Position numbers and translations under genes: made by a program
Notes under the pieces: generated by a model
The model's input: only the letters and a program-made list of their open reading frames with translations
Database searches by the model: none
Told to the model about the DNA's origin: nothing
Shown: positions 28,219 to 36,618 of the stretch, one piece after another
Numbering within the stretch: the stretch's first letter is position 1
Layout of the letters: each line of letters starts with the position of its first letter
Assembly (NCBI RefSeq): GCF_017916505.1
Contig: NZ_JAFMSZ010000003.1
Span: forward strand, 325,083 to 389,082
Origin: Naasia sp. SYSU D00057
GTDB lineage: Bacteria; Actinomycetota; Actinomycetes; Actinomycetales; Microbacteriaceae
Direction: 5' to 3'
Length of the DNA: 64,000 nucleotides

Positions 28219-29568
28219 ATGACCAAGCTTCGGCTGGCCATCATCGGCGCGGGTCCCGCAGGGATCTACGCCGCCGACCTCGTCCGGAAGGCCGAGCGCA
28301 GCTTCGACGTGTCGATCGACCTGTTCGAGCGTCTCCCCGCCCCCTACGGCCTCGTCCGCTACGGCGTGGCGCCCGACCACCCCCGCATCAAGGGCATCAT
28401 CTCGGCCCTGCGCGAGGTGCTCGACCGGGGCGACATCCGCTTCTTCGGCAACGTCGAGTACGGCGTCGACATCACGCTCGACGACCTCAAGCACCACTAC
28501 AACGCCGTCATCTTCGCGACCGGCTCGACGCGGGATGCGTCGCTCGACATCCCCGGCATCGACCTTCCCGGCTCCTACGGCGCCGCCGACTTCGTGTCCT
28601 GGTACGACGGGCACCCGGACGTGCCGCGCGAGTGGCCGCTCGAGGCGAAGGAGGTCGCCGTCATCGGCAACGGCAACGTCGCGCTCGACGTGGCCCGCAT
28701 CCTCGCGAAGCACCCCGACGACCTGCTGCCGACCGAGATCCCCGACAACGTGTACGACGGCCTCAAGGCGTCGCCGGTCACGGACGTGCACGTCTTCGGC
28801 CGCCGCGGACCCGCGCAGGTGAAGTTCACCCCGCTCGAGCTCCGCGAGCTGGGCGAGATCCGCGACGTCGACATGATCGTGCACGACGAGGACTTCGACT
28901 ACGACGAGGCGTCCAAGAACGCGATCGCCACCAACAAGCAGGTGCTCGTCATCGACCGCGTGCTGCAGCAGTGGCGCAAGCGCGAGGTCGGCAAGGCCAG
29001 CCGGCGGCTGCACCTGCACTGGTACGCGAAGCCGCTCGAGATCGTCGGGAACGGCCGCGTCGAGGCGTTCCGCTGGGAGCGCACCGAGCCGGACGGCGAG
29101 GGCGGCGTCCGCGGCACGGGGGAGATCCGCGAGGTGCCGGTGCAGGCCGTGTACCGTGCGGTCGGCTACTTCGGCTCCCCGCTGCCCGAGGTCCCGTTCG
29201 ACGAGCGCCGCGGCGTCATCCCGAACCGGGAGGGCCAGGTGCTCGACGACGCCGACGAGCCGGTGAACGGCGTCTACGCCACCGGGTGGATCAAGCGCGG
29301 GCCGGTGGGCCTCATCGGCCACACGAAGAGCGACGCCATGGAGACGCTGGGCCACGTGCTGTCGGACCAGGCGAACTGGTGGACGCCTGAGGACCCGGCC
29401 GAGGAGTCGGTGCCCGCGCTGCTCGAGGCCCGCGGCGTCCCGTACACCACCATCGACGGCTGGCACCGCCTGGACGCCCACGAGCTCTCGCTCGGCGAGG
29501 CGGTCGGCCGCACCCGCATCAAGGTCGTCCCGCGCGACGACATGACGCGGATCTCGCGCGCCTCCTGA
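28219..29568 (+). CDS. FAD-dependent ferredoxin/adrenodoxin-type NADP reductase (FprA-like)
   Basis: 449 residues. FAD-binding Rossmann motif IIGAGPAGIYAADLV at the N-terminus, the adrenodoxin-reductase signature PYGLVRYGVAPDHPRIKG, NADPH motif VIGNGNVALDVARIL near 150, FGRRGPAQVKFTPLELREL and the C-terminal YATGWIKRGPVGLIGHTKSDA. Moves electrons between NADPH and a ferredoxin, for example for cytochromes P450 or Fe-S assembly. GTGAGGAA ribosome site upstream. The repeat array begins 27 bases after its stop. Confidence 0.93.
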   Translation: MTKLRLAIIGAGPAGIYAADLVRKAERSFDVSIDLFERLPAPYGLVRYGVAPDHPRIKGIISALREVLDRGDIRFFGNVEYGVDITLDDLKHHYNAVIFATGSTRDASLDIPGIDLPGSYGAADFVSWYDGHPDVPREWPLEAKEVAVIGNGNVALDVARILAKHPDDLLPTEIPDNVYDGLKASPVTDVHVFGRRGPAQVKFTPLELRELGEIRDVDMIVHDEDFDYDEASKNAIATNKQVLVIDRVLQQWRKREVGKASRRLHLHWYAKPLEIVGNGRVEAFRWERTEPDGEGGVRGTGEIREVPVQAVYRAVGYFGSPLPEVPFDERRGVIPNREGQVLDDADEPVNGVYATGWIKRGPVGLIGHTKSDAMETLGHVLSDQANWWTPEDPAEESVPALLEARGVPYTTIDGWHRLDAHELSLGEAVGRTRIKVVPRDDMTRISRAS

Positions 29569-29594: not shown

Positions 29595-30164
29595 TTCAGC
29601 AGCAACTTCGGGCGGATTCAGCAGGAACGGCGGGCGGGTTCAGCAGGAGCCGGGGGCGGGTTCAGCAGGAACGGAAGGGCTCCAGCAGGCACGCCGCGAG
29701 GGTTCAGCAGGAACAGAGGGGCTCCAGCAGGCAAATCCGGGCCACTTCTGCCTGCTGAAGCGCCTGCCTGCCTGCTGAACGCCGGGCCGTTGCTGCTGCA
29801 GGACTGATGAGCGGCGGATCGGCCCGTTTCTTGCCGACCGCTGCCGATGCCGGCAGCTTCAGCAGGAACGGAGTGGCTTCAGCAGGCGAATCCGGGCCAC
29901 TTCTGCCTGCTGAAGCGCCTGCCTGCCTGCTGAACGCCGGGCCGTTGCCGCTGCAGGACTGATGAGCGGCGGATCGGCCCTGTCCTCGTGTCCTCGCCGA
30001 CCCCTGCCGATGCCGATAGCTTCAGCAGGAACGAAGCGGTACCAGCAGGCGAAACCGGCTGAGTTCTGCCTGCTGAAGCGCCTCCGTGCCTGCTGAGCCC
30101 CGCAGCGTGCCTGCTGAGCCCCACCGCGGCGTACCTGCTGAACCCGTGCGGCGTTCCTGCTGAA
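29595..30164. repeat. Dense TTCAGCAGG / CCTGCTGAA repeat array, element E
   Basis: Between convergent fprA-like and cardiolipin synthase genes. Exact TTCAGCAGG occurs seven times (29617, 29639, 29661, 29703, 29858, 29878, 30021) and its exact inverse CCTGCTGAA seven times (29751, 29771, 29906, 29926, 30069, 30134, 30156), plus about six one-mismatch copies. A 123-base unit (29703-29825) is duplicated at 29858-29980 with five differences; a degenerate third unit starts near 30021. No credible ORF fills the region. Spacing is irregular and no CRISPR-like unique spacers are present. Function unknown. Confidence 0.9.
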
Positions 30165-30208
30165 CCCGGCCCTGCCTCCTCCTGGGCGGAGGGAAGGACG
30201 CCCGCCGC

Positions 30209-31672
30209 CTACTGCAGCGCCGAGGTGAGCCGCGCGAGGTTGTCGACGACCGAGCCGACGGGGTGGCGCTCGTCCCACTCCTCGAGGGTGAGGCGGCGGC
30301 TGGCTCGGCGGTAGTCGTCCTCGAGCCGGCGGAGCTGCTGCACGAAGTCGCGGCCGCGCACCATGAGGGACAGCTCCACGTTGAGGCTGAACGAGCGGAT
30401 GTCCATGTTGCTCGAGCCGATCACCGCCACCTCCTCGTCGATCGTGAAGTGCTTGGCGTGCAGGATGGTGGGCCGCCGGTACATCCAGATGACGACGCCG
30501 GCCTCGAGCAGCGTCCGGTAGTACGAGCGCTGCGCGTGGTAGACGAGGAACTGGTCGCCGATCTCGGACACGAACAGCTCGACGTGGATGCCGCGCTGCA
30601 CGGCGGTCGTGATCGCGTAGAGCATCGACTCGTCGGGCACGAAGTACGGCGACGTGATGATGATGCGCTCCTGCGCGTAGTAGAGCAGGGCGTTGAAGAG
30701 GCGCAGGTTGTTCTCGCCCTCGAAGCCCGGCCCGCTCGGCACCACCTGGCAGTCGAGCATGTGCGCGGCGATCTGGTCGTCCATCGCCTCCGTCTCCCGC
30801 ACGAGCAGCTCGCCGGTCTCGCCGAACCAGTCGCTGATGAAGATCGCGTTGATGCCGGCCACGATGGGGCCGCGCAGGCGCGTCATCAGGTCCTTCCACT
30901 GCAGGTGCCGGCGCCGGTTGATCCACCGGTTGTAGCTGCGGTCGATCATGTTCTGCGAGCCCATGTAGGCGACCGTGCCGTCGACGACGAGGAGCTTGCG
31001 GTGGTTGCGCAGGTCGGGCCGCTGCCAGCGGCCCTTCAGCGGCTGCACCGGCAGCAGCAGGCGCCACTCGACGCCGGACCGCTTCAGGCGGCGGATCGTC
31101 TTCCGGTAGCCGGGGTACTGCAGCGACGCGACGTGATCGAGCAGCACGCGCACCGTGACGCCGCGCTTCACGGCCGCCTCGAGGGCCGCGAAGAACGGCT
31201 CGGTCGTCGGGTCCGAGGAGAGGATGTAGAACTGCGCGTGCACGTAGCGGCGCGCGCGGCCCACCTCGTCCGCCATCGCGCGGATCGACTCGTCGTAGTC
31301 GGGCAGCAGCGTGGCGCTGTTGCCGCCGACGAGCGGCATCGAGCCGAGCGTGCGGTTGAGCTCGGCCACCGACTCCAGCCACGGCGGCCAGGTGGGCGTC
31401 TTGTTGACGCGGTCCATGCCCTCGGTGGTGCCCCGGATGATCCGGTCGATCTCCTTCTGCCGCTCGCGCCGCTTCTGCGGCAGGTGCGGGCTGCCGATGA
31501 GCAGGAACAGGATGAGCCCGACGTAGGGCAGGAAGAGCACGAGGAGCAGCCACGCGGTGGCCGAGGTCGGCTTCCGGTTGCGCGGGATGATGATCACCGC
31601 CCCGATGCGGATGATCAGGTCGACGACGATCAGGAAGATGGTGACCGCCAGAGTGGCACTGGCGGTGTTCAT
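30209..31672 (-). CDS. cls: Cardiolipin synthase
   Basis: 487 residues. Two N-terminal membrane helices with a PLDc_N domain (NRKPTSATAWLLLVLFLPYVGLILFLLIGS), then two phospholipase D repeats with HKD motifs: HRKLLVVDGTVAYMGSQN near 222 and HAKHFTIDEEVAVIGSSN near 402. Condenses two phosphatidylglycerol molecules to cardiolipin at the membrane. Downstream of yajQ on the same strand. Ends next to the repeat array. Confidence 0.93.
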   Translation of the reverse strand: MNTASATLAVTIFLIVVDLIIRIGAVIIIPRNRKPTSATAWLLLVLFLPYVGLILFLLIGSPHLPQKRRERQKEIDRIIRGTTEGMDRVNKTPTWPPWLESVAELNRTLGSMPLVGGNSATLLPDYDESIRAMADEVGRARRYVHAQFYILSSDPTTEPFFAALEAAVKRGVTVRVLLDHVASLQYPGYRKTIRRLKRSGVEWRLLLPVQPLKGRWQRPDLRNHRKLLVVDGTVAYMGSQNMIDRSYNRWINRRRHLQWKDLMTRLRGPIVAGINAIFISDWFGETGELLVRETEAMDDQIAAHMLDCQVVPSGPGFEGENNLRLFNALLYYAQERIIITSPYFVPDESMLYAITTAVQRGIHVELFVSEIGDQFLVYHAQRSYYRTLLEAGVVIWMYRRPTILHAKHFTIDEEVAVIGSSNMDIRSFSLNVELSLMVRGRDFVQQLRRLEDDYRRASRRLTLEEWDERHPVGSVVDNLARLTSALQ

Positions 31673-34704: not shown

Positions 34705-35574
34705 GTGCTGCCTTCTCCTCATCCGAACGTCCGTCTGCCCGAACTCGAGATCACTTCGGTCGCCCCTCCCGCGGGCGGCCCCGGCGCTCGTCAGAAGGGG
34801 CGCCGCACAACTTGGGTCGACGCGCCCCTCGACGTCCGCATCGCGAACGAGACCCGTCGTCCCCGCCGCTTCGCCCGCTTCGCGCGACCGGTCCTGACCG
34901 CCGGGACCATGCTCGCCGTCGTCTCGATGGCCGTGGTCACGTCGCTGCCGGCCAACGCCTTCTACTCGGAGACCGGCTCCTCCGCCGCCGTGCAGGCCGC
35001 CGCTCCGAGTGAGCCCGCCCAGACGCTGTCGGCCACCGAGGCCGAGGCCGCCGCCATCGAGCGCGACGGCTACACGGTGACCGAGCGCACGCCGGTCGAG
35101 AAGGCGGTCGCCGACGAGTTCGCCCAGGTCGAGAGCTTCGTCAACAACACCGAGACCGCGATCGTGTGGCCGTTCCAGGGTGCGCTCAAGCTCTCCGACG
35201 GGTTCGGCCCGCGCGTCTCCCCGTGCTCCGGCTGCTCCACCATGCACCTCGGCACCGACTTCCTCCCCGGCGAGGGCAACCCCGTCGTGGCGATGGCCGA
35301 CGGCGTCGTGACCGGCGTCGAGTCCACGGGCGGCCTCGGCTACCACGTGACCATCGACCACATCGTCGACGGCCAGCTCGTCACCACGACCTCCGCCCAC
35401 ATGCAGGCTGGCTCGATCGTCGTGTCGGTGGGCCAGGCAGTGCGTGCGGGCGACCAGATCGGCCGTGTCGGCAACACCGGCGCCTCCACCGGCCCGCACC
35501 TGCACTTCGAGCTGCGGCTCGGCGGCACGGAGCCGGTCGACGCGTACGCCTGGATCTCCTCCCGCATCGGCTAG
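34705..35574 (+). CDS. M23-family (LytM) peptidoglycan peptidase, membrane-anchored or secreted
   Basis: 289 residues. A long basic N-terminus, then one hydrophobic segment (PVLTAGTMLAVVSMAVVTSLPANAF) that serves as signal or anchor, a linker, and a C-terminal M23 domain: DGFGPRVSPC, zinc ligands in HLGTDF, an AHM motif, and GPHLHFELRLGG with the catalytic HxH. Cleaves or regulates cleavage of peptide cross-links in the cell wall. GTG start at 34705. Very similar in domain plan to the next gene. Confidence 0.9.
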   Translation: MLPSPHPNVRLPELEITSVAPPAGGPGARQKGRRTTWVDAPLDVRIANETRRPRRFARFARPVLTAGTMLAVVSMAVVTSLPANAFYSETGSSAAVQAAAPSEPAQTLSATEAEAAAIERDGYTVTERTPVEKAVADEFAQVESFVNNTETAIVWPFQGALKLSDGFGPRVSPCSGCSTMHLGTDFLPGEGNPVVAMADGVVTGVESTGGLGYHVTIDHIVDGQLVTTTSAHMQAGSIVVSVGQAVRAGDQIGRVGNTGASTGPHLHFELRLGGTEPVDAYAWISSRIG

Positions 35575-35745: not shown

Positions 35746-36618
35746 ATGCAGCCGTCCCTCTCCGCGCCTCCGGGTTCGCGCCCGCACGGCTCAGGAGACC
35801 CGGTGCTCTCGCGGCGCTCGCTGCGGCGGCTGGAGGAGGAGCAGCGGAGCCTCGTGCGCCGCTCGCGGGTCCGCCGCTCGGCCGCGCTTCCGCCGGCCCC
35901 GGTGCGCCGCTCGCCTGCGCGTCGAGCAGCGCGACCGCTGTTCACGGCCCTGACGATGCTCGCGGCGGCGTCGATGGCGTTCGTCACCTCGGTGCCCGCG
36001 AACGCGCTGCTGAGCGACGACGACCTCGTGAGCGTCCGCCTCGCCCAGTACGCGAACGGTGAGGCGCAGCAGCTCGAGTCGACGCTCGCCGAGACCGGTC
36101 CCATCGTCCGCGACGGCTACGCCGTCCGCACCGCGGCGGAGAACCGGATGGCTGCGCGCTTCGGCGGCGTCGAGAGCTTCAGGAACAACCGGCAGTCGGC
36201 CGTGCAGTGGCCCTTCGCGGTGACCGTGCCGGTCACGGACGGGTTCGGCTACCGCAGGTCGCCGTGCGCCGGCTGCTCCTCGATGCACCAGGGCACCGAC
36301 TTCACCCCCGGCAACGGCGCCCCGATCCAGGCGATCGCCGACGGCGTCGTCCGCACGGTCGTCGAGTCCGACTCGGGCCTCGGCGTGCACGTCGTGATCG
36401 AGCACCTCATCGACGGCGACCTCGTGACGAGCACCTACGCCCACATGCAGTTCGGCTCGGTGCCGCTCTCCGAGGGTCAGGCCGTCGGCGTGGGCGACCT
36501 GGTCGGACTCGTCGGCAATACCGGCGCTTCGACGGGGCCGCACCTGCACTTCGAGCTCCGCCTCGGTGGCACGAAGGCGGTCGACGCCTACGCCTGGCTC
36601 GAGCGCCACGCGGGCTGA
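35746..36618 (+). CDS. Second M23-family peptidoglycan peptidase (tandem paralogue)
   Basis: 290 residues. Same plan as the upstream gene: basic N-terminus (longer Arg/Glu segment), hydrophobic ALTMLAAASMAFVTSVPANAL, linker with RDGYAVRTAAENRMAARFGGVESF, then M23 domain with DGFGYRRSPCAGCSSMHQGTDF, AHMQF and GPHLHFELRLGG. Zinc ligands are all retained in both copies, so both can be active. Tandem duplication followed by divergence of the N-terminal half is evident. Confidence 0.9.
   Translation: MQPSLSAPPGSRPHGSGDPVLSRRSLRRLEEEQRSLVRRSRVRRSAALPPAPVRRSPARRAARPLFTALTMLAAASMAFVTSVPANALLSDDDLVSVRLAQYANGEAQQLESTLAETGPIVRDGYAVRTAAENRMAARFGGVESFRNNRQSAVQWPFAVTVPVTDGFGYRRSPCAGCSSMHQGTDFTPGNGAPIQAIADGVVRTVVESDSGLGVHVVIEHLIDGDLVTSTYAHMQFGSVPLSEGQAVGVGDLVGLVGNTGASTGPHLHFELRLGGTKAVDAYAWLERHAG

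What the first reader, a model, noticed from the sequence alone, without database searches (positions are those of the whole stretch)
29595..30164. Array of seven TTCAGCAGG and seven CCTGCTGAA copies between convergent genes
A 570-base non-coding region carries 14 exact and about six near copies of one nine-base motif in both orientations. The motif is intergenic, irregularly spaced and enclosed by convergent genes. It could be a protein-binding array, a hairpin-rich transcript end, a chromosome-organising site or an expanding repeat. I know of no named element that matches.
Basis: seen in the sequence. Interest (0 to 1): 0.75.

Follow-up and report, generated by a model that had tools for sequence, protein, structure and literature searches.

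The report
Nuclease-linked palindromic repeats between genes
The repeat cluster belongs to a family of four-part DNA palindromes found at gene ends in some actinobacteria, where each version is paired with its own nuclease-like gene that sits between two copies of it, an arrangement that resembles known REP repeats but uses an unrelated enzyme.

Summary
Confirmed, and larger than reported. The 14 exact 9-mers (0.18 expected per window) are half-sites of a 75-bp palindrome, TCAGCAGG-12-TCAGCAGG-19-CCTGCTGA-12-CCTGCTGA; the window holds three full copies plus extra half-sites. The genome (genus Naasia, Microbacteriaceae) has 114 matches to the four-site skeleton. Arrays lie in 18 of 58 convergent, 16 of 143 tandem and 0 of 77 divergent gaps examined. 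Pooled, arms do not covary within copies, so duplex half-sites rather than a hairpin seem conserved.

A 278-aa protein with a Vsr/EDxHD-type nuclease domain, related to the homing enzyme I-Bth0305I, and an AbiEi-like N-terminus is encoded elsewhere in this genome between copies of the same palindrome. Its homologs are flanked on both sides by palindromes in 37 of 49 loci, against 15 of 197 control genes; left and right match each other but differ between paralogs. A written prediction from one homolog's dialect held in the three predicted genomes. The genome lacks the REP enzyme RAYT.

Best reading: a nuclease-palindrome system organised like REP-RAYT with an unrelated enzyme. Binding, cutting and mobility are inferred, not shown.

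The parts
29595..30168 (.). whole array: three complete four-site palindromes plus outward half-sites
29704..29778 (.). four-site element 1 (TCAGCAGG-12-CCAGCAGG-19-CCTGCTGA-12-CCTGCTGA)
   Evidence: 123-bp repeat unit 29703-29825
29859..29933 (.). four-site element 2; its 123-bp unit 29858-29980 is 96% identical to that of element 1 (local duplication)
30022..30096 (.). four-site element 3 (67% identity over the 123-bp unit)
29595..29691 (+). left outward half-sites, forward orientation, mostly 22 bp apart; the first is a near copy (TTCAGCAGC)
   Evidence: (family D2)
30097..30168 (-). right outward half-sites, reverse orientation, 21-24 bp apart
   Evidence: (family D3)
28219..29568 (+). left neighbour: ferredoxin-NADP reductase-like gene (name by reading the sequence, no family search); its stop is 27 bp before the first half-site
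30209..31672 (-). right neighbour: cardiolipin synthase / phospholipase D-like gene (name by reading the sequence), convergent

Best explanation
The array is a locally amplified cluster of a dispersed, non-coding, four-half-site palindrome. The palindrome is the cognate DNA site of a chromosomal Vsr/EDxHD-type endonuclease encoded elsewhere in the same genome (contig C11, 21784-22620) between copies of the same palindrome. Shown: the recurring geometry; intergenic 3'-end location; a nuclease-type gene between two matching palindromes; a different palindrome dialect for different paralogs; joint divergence; local duplication inside arrays. Inferred: the AbiEi-like N-terminus reads the half-sites and a protein dimer spans the palindrome, as I-Bth0305I is reported to dimerise on a target of nearly 60 bp. 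The nuclease domain then nicks or cuts at or near the palindrome. Repair with a neighbouring or sister copy duplicates units, so arrays grow. Repair with the gene-carrying copy can turn 'palindrome' into 'palindrome-gene-palindrome', a homing-like spread. Sitting at gene 3' ends keeps the cost to the host low.
For: Fifty-nine copies fit the four-site frame exactly, 32 of them under 80% identical (the search fixed the spacing, so the frame itself rests). Skeleton CAGG-N15/16-CAGG-N19-CCTG-N15/16-CCTG in 39 of 398 family genomes, reversed control in 1. Own gene has three copies on each side. Both-flank palindrome score >=13 in 37 of 49 homolog loci (19 of 28 among the top hits not picked for elements) against 15 of 197 control genes, Fisher 1.4e-21 for 37/49; the threshold was set, and a rank test without threshold gives 7e-19. 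Left-right match 30.5 against 11.1 between loci; Mantel r 0.46, none of 2000 permutations as high, not corrected for species relatedness. Sequence-blind scan: outer spacing 15 in up to 28 of 156 flanks, at most 3 at any other spacing. Prediction for the TAGG dialect held in G016, G254 and G292; reversed control 0 of 398. Second own paralog has its own dialect: 13 half-sites, 4 beside it, 9 elsewhere, control 0. Profile and fold links to I-Bth0305I, DUF559, Vsr and AbiEi. In G068, G299, G301 and G232 the closest homolog of the own C11 gene lies between sdhB-like and YihY-like genes; in this genome that place holds the other paralog, and the C11 gene lies beside a der-like gene (gene names by reading).
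Against: No binding, cutting or movement was tested. Copies at different loci share no spacer similarity above a shuffled null, so there is no sign of recent dispersal in this genome; half-sites kept in old copies could mean a host function. No empty site or target duplication was found. Of five fetched element pairs about 1 kb apart in other genomes, three enclose the nuclease gene (G016, G159, G142) and two enclose other genes (G097, G200); two wider pairs (G346, G209) also enclose other genes. Genus g32 has TAGG copies without a close homolog in the same genomes; the divergent homologs there had no strict TAGG element within 1.5 kb, and a TAGG-like palindrome on one side in a few. Twelve of 49 loci fail the two-sided threshold. 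By the cruder measure of the longest shared left-right word, only 11 of 49 loci beat every mismatched pairing in their row and column. Homologs are in 281 of 398 genomes but the CAGG skeleton in 39, so presence alone does not correlate. Outside the family, 1 of 7 loci (L274) and 0 of 4 plasmid loci had palindromes over threshold with matching sides.
Confidence: 0.7

Rival explanations
1. A host-functional site: the AbiEi/Vsr-type protein (or another protein) binds the palindromes at gene 3' ends for transcription termination, convergent-transcription conflict control or nucleoid organisation; nuclease activity is secondary or lost.
For: Half-sites are conserved although spacers are saturated; 0 of 77 divergent gaps against 18 of 58 convergent, p 4e-8.
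Against: Dialect differs between species and between paralogs in one genome; 359 of 398 family genomes lack the CAGG skeleton; acidic and histidine residues of the nuclease domain are invariant in 43 homologs, so a dead nuclease is not indicated.
Confidence: 0.2
2. RNA hairpin: bidirectional intrinsic terminator or mRNA-stabilising stem between convergent genes.
For: Location at 3' ends; the 640-nt region folds with z -8.35. One of nine sets of copies from other genomes, G097, which mixes subtypes, does show more pairing within copies (0.68 against 0.52).
Against: Own copies: spacers pair in 0.435 within and 0.458 between copies, p 0.85. Nine other sets pooled: 0.692 against 0.681, p 0.22. No Rfam family near its gathering score. 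Does not explain the link to the gene.
Confidence: 0.05
3. Ordinary REP/BIME elements moved by a RAYT (HUH, Y1 transposase).
For: Same organisation: gene flanked by two palindromes, many extragenic copies, joint divergence (PMC2817692 abstract and passages; PMC3116915 passages).
Against: No PF01797 match in this genome at E 1e-3, while 5 of 14 control genomes ring. The flanked gene has a Vsr-type nuclease domain. No pooled covariation.
Confidence: 0.02
4. Chance clustering of a codon-rich 9-mer or an assembly artefact.
For: The 9-mer occurs in all 299 family genomes sampled, usually above its reversed control.
Against: 291 against 35 control copies; paired geometry on five contigs with 0 controls; recurs in other assemblies.
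Confidence: 0.01

Closest known systems
REP / REPIN elements with RAYT (REP-associated tyrosine transposase)
   Same: Enzyme gene between two copies of a palindrome, many dispersed extragenic copies, one variant per enzyme, joint divergence (PMC2817692 abstract and passages; PMC3116915 passages).
   Different: Gene product has a Vsr/EDxHD nuclease domain and AbiEi-like N-terminus, not HUH; element has four half-sites over about 75 bp, no GTAG head seen, no compensatory pairing in pooled tests.
EDxHD homing endonucleases (I-Bth0305I) and Vsr endonuclease
   Same: Nuclease domain: 3r3p profile E 3e-4 over profile positions 193-269; Foldseek 3r3p E 2.2e-3, target TM 0.81, Vsr 1cw0 E 0.016. I-Bth0305I is described as dimerising on a target of nearly 60 bp (PMC3943268 passages). 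A DUF559 gene in an intein context is assigned to EDxHD in PMC9403480 (one passage).
   Different: Not seen in an intron, intein or phage gene here; lies between two complete palindromes; about a hundred further target-like copies in the genome.
AbiEi antitoxin (type IV toxin-antitoxin AbiE)
   Same: N-terminal match: AbiEi_4 in 18 and AbiEi_3_N in 6 of 43 members, own residues 10-69, PADLOC AbiEi models. Best Foldseek hit 6y8q, E 9.7e-5 but rmsd 12 and query TM 0.28. That AbiEi binds inverted repeats is recalled, not seen here.
   Different: No toxin-like neighbour seen by reading the predicted genes beside six loci; carries a nuclease domain.
MTES_1575 REase / DUF559 (Pfam PF18741, PF04480)
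   Same: C-terminal domain: 41 and 39 of 43 members at E 0.01; the own protein is over the DUF559 cut-off but under the MTES_1575 one. MTES_1575 is described as a Vsr-family REase in a large HEPN fusion protein (PMC3710099 passages).
   Different: No palindrome association found in the listings searched. DUF559-transposase segments are reported as recombination hotspots in Legionella (PMC12308824 passages).
DNA uptake sequences (recalled, from no call)
   Same: Short species-specific dialects, inverted pairs at gene ends.
   Different: Here copies are about a hundred, four-site and gene-flanking.

Membership tests
REP-RAYT | Y1/HUH transposase (PF01797) in the genome | tested here: not met
   0 matches at E 1e-3 in own genome
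REP-RAYT | enzyme gene flanked on both sides by the repeat | tested here: met
   (with an unrelated enzyme)
REP-RAYT | palindrome kept by complementary changes | tested here: not met
   (pooled; one of nine sets, G097, shows an excess)
REP-RAYT | GT(A/G)G head beside the palindrome | tested here: not met
   by eye on the copies and the base frequencies
EDxHD/Vsr homing endonuclease | EDxHD/Vsr-type nuclease domain with conserved acidic and histidine residues | tested here: met
   (invariant E185, D212, D224, H229, D238)
EDxHD/Vsr homing endonuclease | cuts a long cognate site | not testable with these tools
   needs purified protein
EDxHD/Vsr homing endonuclease | gene inserted in, and spreading to, its own target | tested here: inconclusive
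   gene lies between two matched palindromes; place and paralog differ within Naasia; no empty site seen
AbiE type IV toxin-antitoxin | adjacent AbiEii toxin gene | tested here: inconclusive
   none among predicted neighbours of six loci by reading; no family search was run
Intrinsic terminator / RNA element | base-pair covariation in the stem | tested here: not met
ParB/parS or other chromosome-organising site | binding by a partition or nucleoid protein | not tested
   no tool for binding; no sequence lead

The most novel reading that the evidence does not exclude
An undescribed class of selfish or domesticated system: homing-type endonucleases that, without a transposase, own and propagate a dispersed four-site palindrome at gene ends. 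Each enzyme has its own dialect, and enzyme and dialect are swapped at fixed genomic places, having evolved convergently with REP-RAYT. Many actinobacterial proteins annotated as orphan 'AbiEi family antitoxin' would be such enzymes.
Probability: 0.5. Interest if true: 0.92.

Novelty: categorically new. Interest (0 to 1): 0.87.

Why it matters
The REP palindromes of the papers read here have one kind of partner enzyme, the RAYT. A second, unrelated enzyme with the same genomic organisation would show that enzyme-owned palindromes evolved more than once. It gives a large natural set of candidate protein-DNA specificity pairs (one enzyme, one dialect) and a testable idea for how short repeats grow into arrays. 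It also suggests that some 'orphan antitoxins' and 'DUF559 proteins' need a new name.

Tried and rejected
RAYT/HUH enzyme: none in own genome. RNA structure: folds strongly but no pooled covariation; Rfam gave only sub-threshold microRNA look-alikes. Recent transposition in own genome: no cross-locus spacer similarity above a shuffled null. Presence/absence correlation of gene and element: uninformative, homologs are in 281 of 398 genomes. Synteny of the own C11 gene with relatives: the four neighbours gave no hit in 8 loci, which led. Extension outside the family: of 376 phylum genomes 10 had matches at E 1e-10, 4 of them outside the family; 1 of their 7 loci has matched palindromes over threshold; of all 30 loci, 14 have palindromes over threshold on both sides (own genome included). 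Plasmid and phage collections: 4 and 1 homologs under 35% identity; the phage record was not opened. A first structure model from three sequences was poor (pLDDT 58.5) and not used. Literature: ten searches showed, in their listings, no paper joining DUF559/MTES_1575/AbiEi-nuclease genes to palindromes; I looked at passages of nine papers and read none whole. Only open PubMed Central papers are held, so absence from print is not shown.

Errors and weak points of my own: I translated the wrong frame and for a while took the G142 gene as broken; one search shows it open. One search counted one overlapping stretch twice; one search is the corrected count (L101 dropped, L088 trimmed). One search fixed the spacing, so it cannot itself show that spacing is invariant; one search shows rare others (29, 47). 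The 114 and the 46 are pattern matches; overlapping choices of half-sites can count one element twice. Of the 49 loci (L202, L203, L180) were found through their elements and 18 were paralogs picked from the hit list; L242 and L244 (duplicates) and L221 and L231 (short flanks) were dropped. Controls come partly from stretches chosen for arrays, which works against my reading, 5 of the 22 control genes over the line are themselves enzyme or element-selected loci; the controls (28 left and 25 right flanks of 262 genes, 2 genes both sides) come largely from array stretches and are not used. One search used 59 of the 66 distinct copies listed for ten genomes (seven left out by eye: other subtype, near-duplicate or other length); other listed genomes were not used. 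In one search part B, 5 of 42 loci fell out because the element was not at the expected place. L180 (G326) matches the enzyme in two pieces with an internal part missing; it is only described. Genes were called by a codon-usage script trained on this genome; neighbour names are mostly by reading.

Full report
Observation. The window carries 14 exact copies of the 9-mer, 7 in each orientation, all between 29617 and 30164; 100 shuffles gave a mean of 0.18 and at most 2. The region lies between two convergent genes. The genome has 291 copies against 35 of the reversed control, and 46 matches to TTCAGCAGG-N10..40-CCTGCTGAA against 0 controls. The 9-mer alone is found in all 299 family genomes sampled, usually above its reversed control, so the paired geometry, not the 9-mer, is the discriminating feature.

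Anatomy. A search that fixed the spacing recovered 59 copies: 8-12-8-19-8-12-8 bp. One search, which did not fix it, shows 20, 28 and 48 as the common distances between neighbouring half-sites, 20-24 for outward repeats, and rare others such as 29 and 47. The motif positions carry up to 2 bits of information each while the spacers carry little (32 copies under 80% identity). In the window there are three full elements (29704-29778, 29859-29933, 30022-30096) with extra half-sites on both outer sides. Elements 1 and 2 lie in 123-bp units that are 96% identical, so one arose by local duplication.

Not a hairpin constraint. Left and right spacers pair in 43.5% of positions within a copy and 45.8% between copies (p 0.85). 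In nine sets of copies from ten other genomes (59 of 66 listed copies used) the pooled figures are 69.2% and 68.1% for the outer part and 55.6% and 54.2% for the inner part (p 0.22 and 0.25). One set, G097, which mixes subtypes, does show an excess (0.68 against 0.52 and 0.60 against 0.44). The strong fold of the RNA (z -8.35) can follow from inverted half-sites alone. This favours recognition on duplex DNA.

Location. In 40 overlap-free stretches of this genome (about 455 kb, chosen for carrying the motif, genes called by a script of mine), arrays of three or more half-sites lie in 18 of 58 convergent gaps, 16 of 143 tandem gaps and 0 of 77 divergent gaps; exact 9-mers are 205 intergenic and 15 genic. 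Of 42 element loci (41 in other genomes, L196 is own), 37 could be placed: 17 convergent, 16 tandem, 3 divergent and 1 at an edge.

Distribution and dialects. The skeleton CAGG-N15/16-CAGG-N19-CCTG-N15/16-CCTG occurs in 39 of 398 family genomes (9 of 85 genera); the reversed pattern occurs in 1. Own genome has 114 matches, the other eight genomes of the genus 0 to 32. A contig-length match identifies G068 as Naasia sp. SYSU D00948, so the genus is Naasia. Bases around the skeleton differ between genomes in a consistent way, which I call dialects. At the orthologous gap G068 has a single four-site element 27 bp after the same stop codon, then two other genes before the cardiolipin synthase-like gene; the stretches of the other seven relatives show no such element at the level of the CAGCAG/CTGCTG scan.

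The gene. In several genomes two elements lie about 1 kb apart. Of five such pairs fetched, G016, G159 and G142 enclose the same kind of gene as the own pair of arrays on C11, while G097 and G200 enclose other genes, as do the wider pairs in G346 and G209. The gene product matches DUF559 over its cut-off and MTES_1575 under its cut-off. A 43-member alignment has invariant A54, H107, E185, D212, D224, H229 and D238; its profile matches the solved structures 3hrl (E 1.8e-8) and the homing endonuclease I-Bth0305I, 3r3p (E 3e-4), in the C-terminal part. The predicted fold is confident (pLDDT 93.3, pTM 0.90). Its best Foldseek hits are an AbiEi antitoxin (E 9.7e-5, but rmsd 12 and query TM 0.28), I-Bth0305I (E 2.2e-3, target TM 0.81), Vsr (E 0.016) and 3hrl (E 0.018); only the first is under 1e-3. 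The N-terminal AbiEi assignment rests on Pfam and PADLOC: AbiEi_4 in 18 and AbiEi_3_N in 6 of 43 members.

Gene and palindrome belong together. For 49 homolog loci with both flanks held, both flanks carry a palindrome of score 13 or more in 37, against 15 of 197 control genes (Fisher 1.4e-21; rank test 7e-19; the threshold was set); among top hits not picked for elements it is 19 of 28. The left and right palindromes of one gene match each other (mean local score 30.5) far better than palindromes of different loci (11.1); similarity of proteins and of palindromes correlates (Mantel r 0.46, 0 of 2000 permutations as high), though species relatedness was not corrected for. Longest shared left-right words of 13 or more: 36 of 49 loci against 22 of 205 controls, five of which are themselves enzyme or element-selected loci; but by this measure only 11 of 49 beat all mismatched pairings. 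A scan that assumes no sequence, only W-N(o)-W-N(i)-W'-N(o)-W', gives up to 28 of 156 flanks at o=15 and at most 3 at any other o; W is CAGG, TAGG, CTCG, CGGA, GAGG or CACG, among others overlapping these, depending on the gene.

A prediction made beforehand. The enzyme L219 of G016 and its relatives in G292 and G254 are flanked by a TAGG dialect. I wrote down that dispersed TAGG copies would be found in these three genomes and few others. The search found 11, 5 and 4 there, 0 reversed controls in 398 genomes, and six further genomes: G379 with 17, G214 with 5, and one each in G329, G099, G159 and G177. Among the listed places two in G016, two in G292 and one in G254 are the copies beside the gene, so the rest are dispersed. 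In genus g32, which was not predicted, only divergent homologs were found except one close one in G295. Several of the divergent ones have matched palindromes of yet other dialects on both sides; none had a strict TAGG element within 1.5 kb, and a few have a TAGG-like palindrome on one side. The second own paralog on C17 also has its own dialect: 13 half-sites, 4 beside it and 9 elsewhere, control 0.

Evolution. Within one array spacer identity averages 0.70 (15 of 52 pairs above 0.8); between loci it is 0.53, equal to a column-shuffled null, with 2 of 1659 pairs above 0.8. Arrays grow locally, and copies at different loci are old while their half-sites are kept. In G068, G299, G301 and G232 the homolog closest to the own C11 gene (62-67% identity) sits between sdhB-like and YihY-like genes. 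In own genome that place carries the other paralog, and the C11 gene sits beside a der-like gene (names by reading). So a place can change its enzyme and an enzyme can change its place, or both were once present and were lost differently; the direction is not known.

Mechanism. My best reading is given in the best explanation, with shown and inferred steps separated. The argument for a dimer on four sites is by analogy: I-Bth0305I is described as dimerising on a target of nearly 60 bp (PMC3943268, passages).

Comparison with the known. [quoted passage not shown] The organisation here is the same; the enzyme, the element geometry and the lack of compensatory pairing differ, and no PF01797 protein was found in the genome. 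It works like REP-RAYT but is not a member. I call it categorically new because the enzyme is unrelated and the element type is different; a reader who files by organisation would call it a new variant. Ten paper searches listed no description, within open-access papers only.

Noticed in passing
L339 1863-2726; L340 1890-2855 (Tsukamurella plasmids): Homologs are annotated as 'type IV toxin-antitoxin system AbiEi family antitoxin domain-containing protein'; the match covers 85-87% of the own protein, so the name may hide a nuclease domain.
   Followed up: partly
G209 (L179, L207; named records L124, L169): Contigs of G209, placed in genus g17 with Amnibacterium kyonggiense (G097), have the lengths (76079, 21924) of records titled 'Acidobacteria bacterium isolate G2_29'; the record title looks wrong.
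   Followed up: partly
L055 2275-3700 (G068): At the orthologous gap of Naasia sp. SYSU D00948 a hydrolase-like gene and a TetR-like gene (names by reading) stand between the single element and the cardiolipin synthase-like gene.
   Followed up: partly
L313, L328, L337 (genus g32): Another dialect (about AAACGCAAC..GTTGCGTTT) of long palindromes flanks divergent homologs on both sides; the four-site geometry was not checked there.
   Followed up: no
L180 925-1491 (G326): Homolog matching in two pieces with a central part missing, still between two elements; looks like a decayed copy.
   Followed up: no
window 34909-35574 and 35956-36618: Two neighbouring, similar M23-peptidase-like genes (by reading the translations), probably a tandem duplication.
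   Followed up: no
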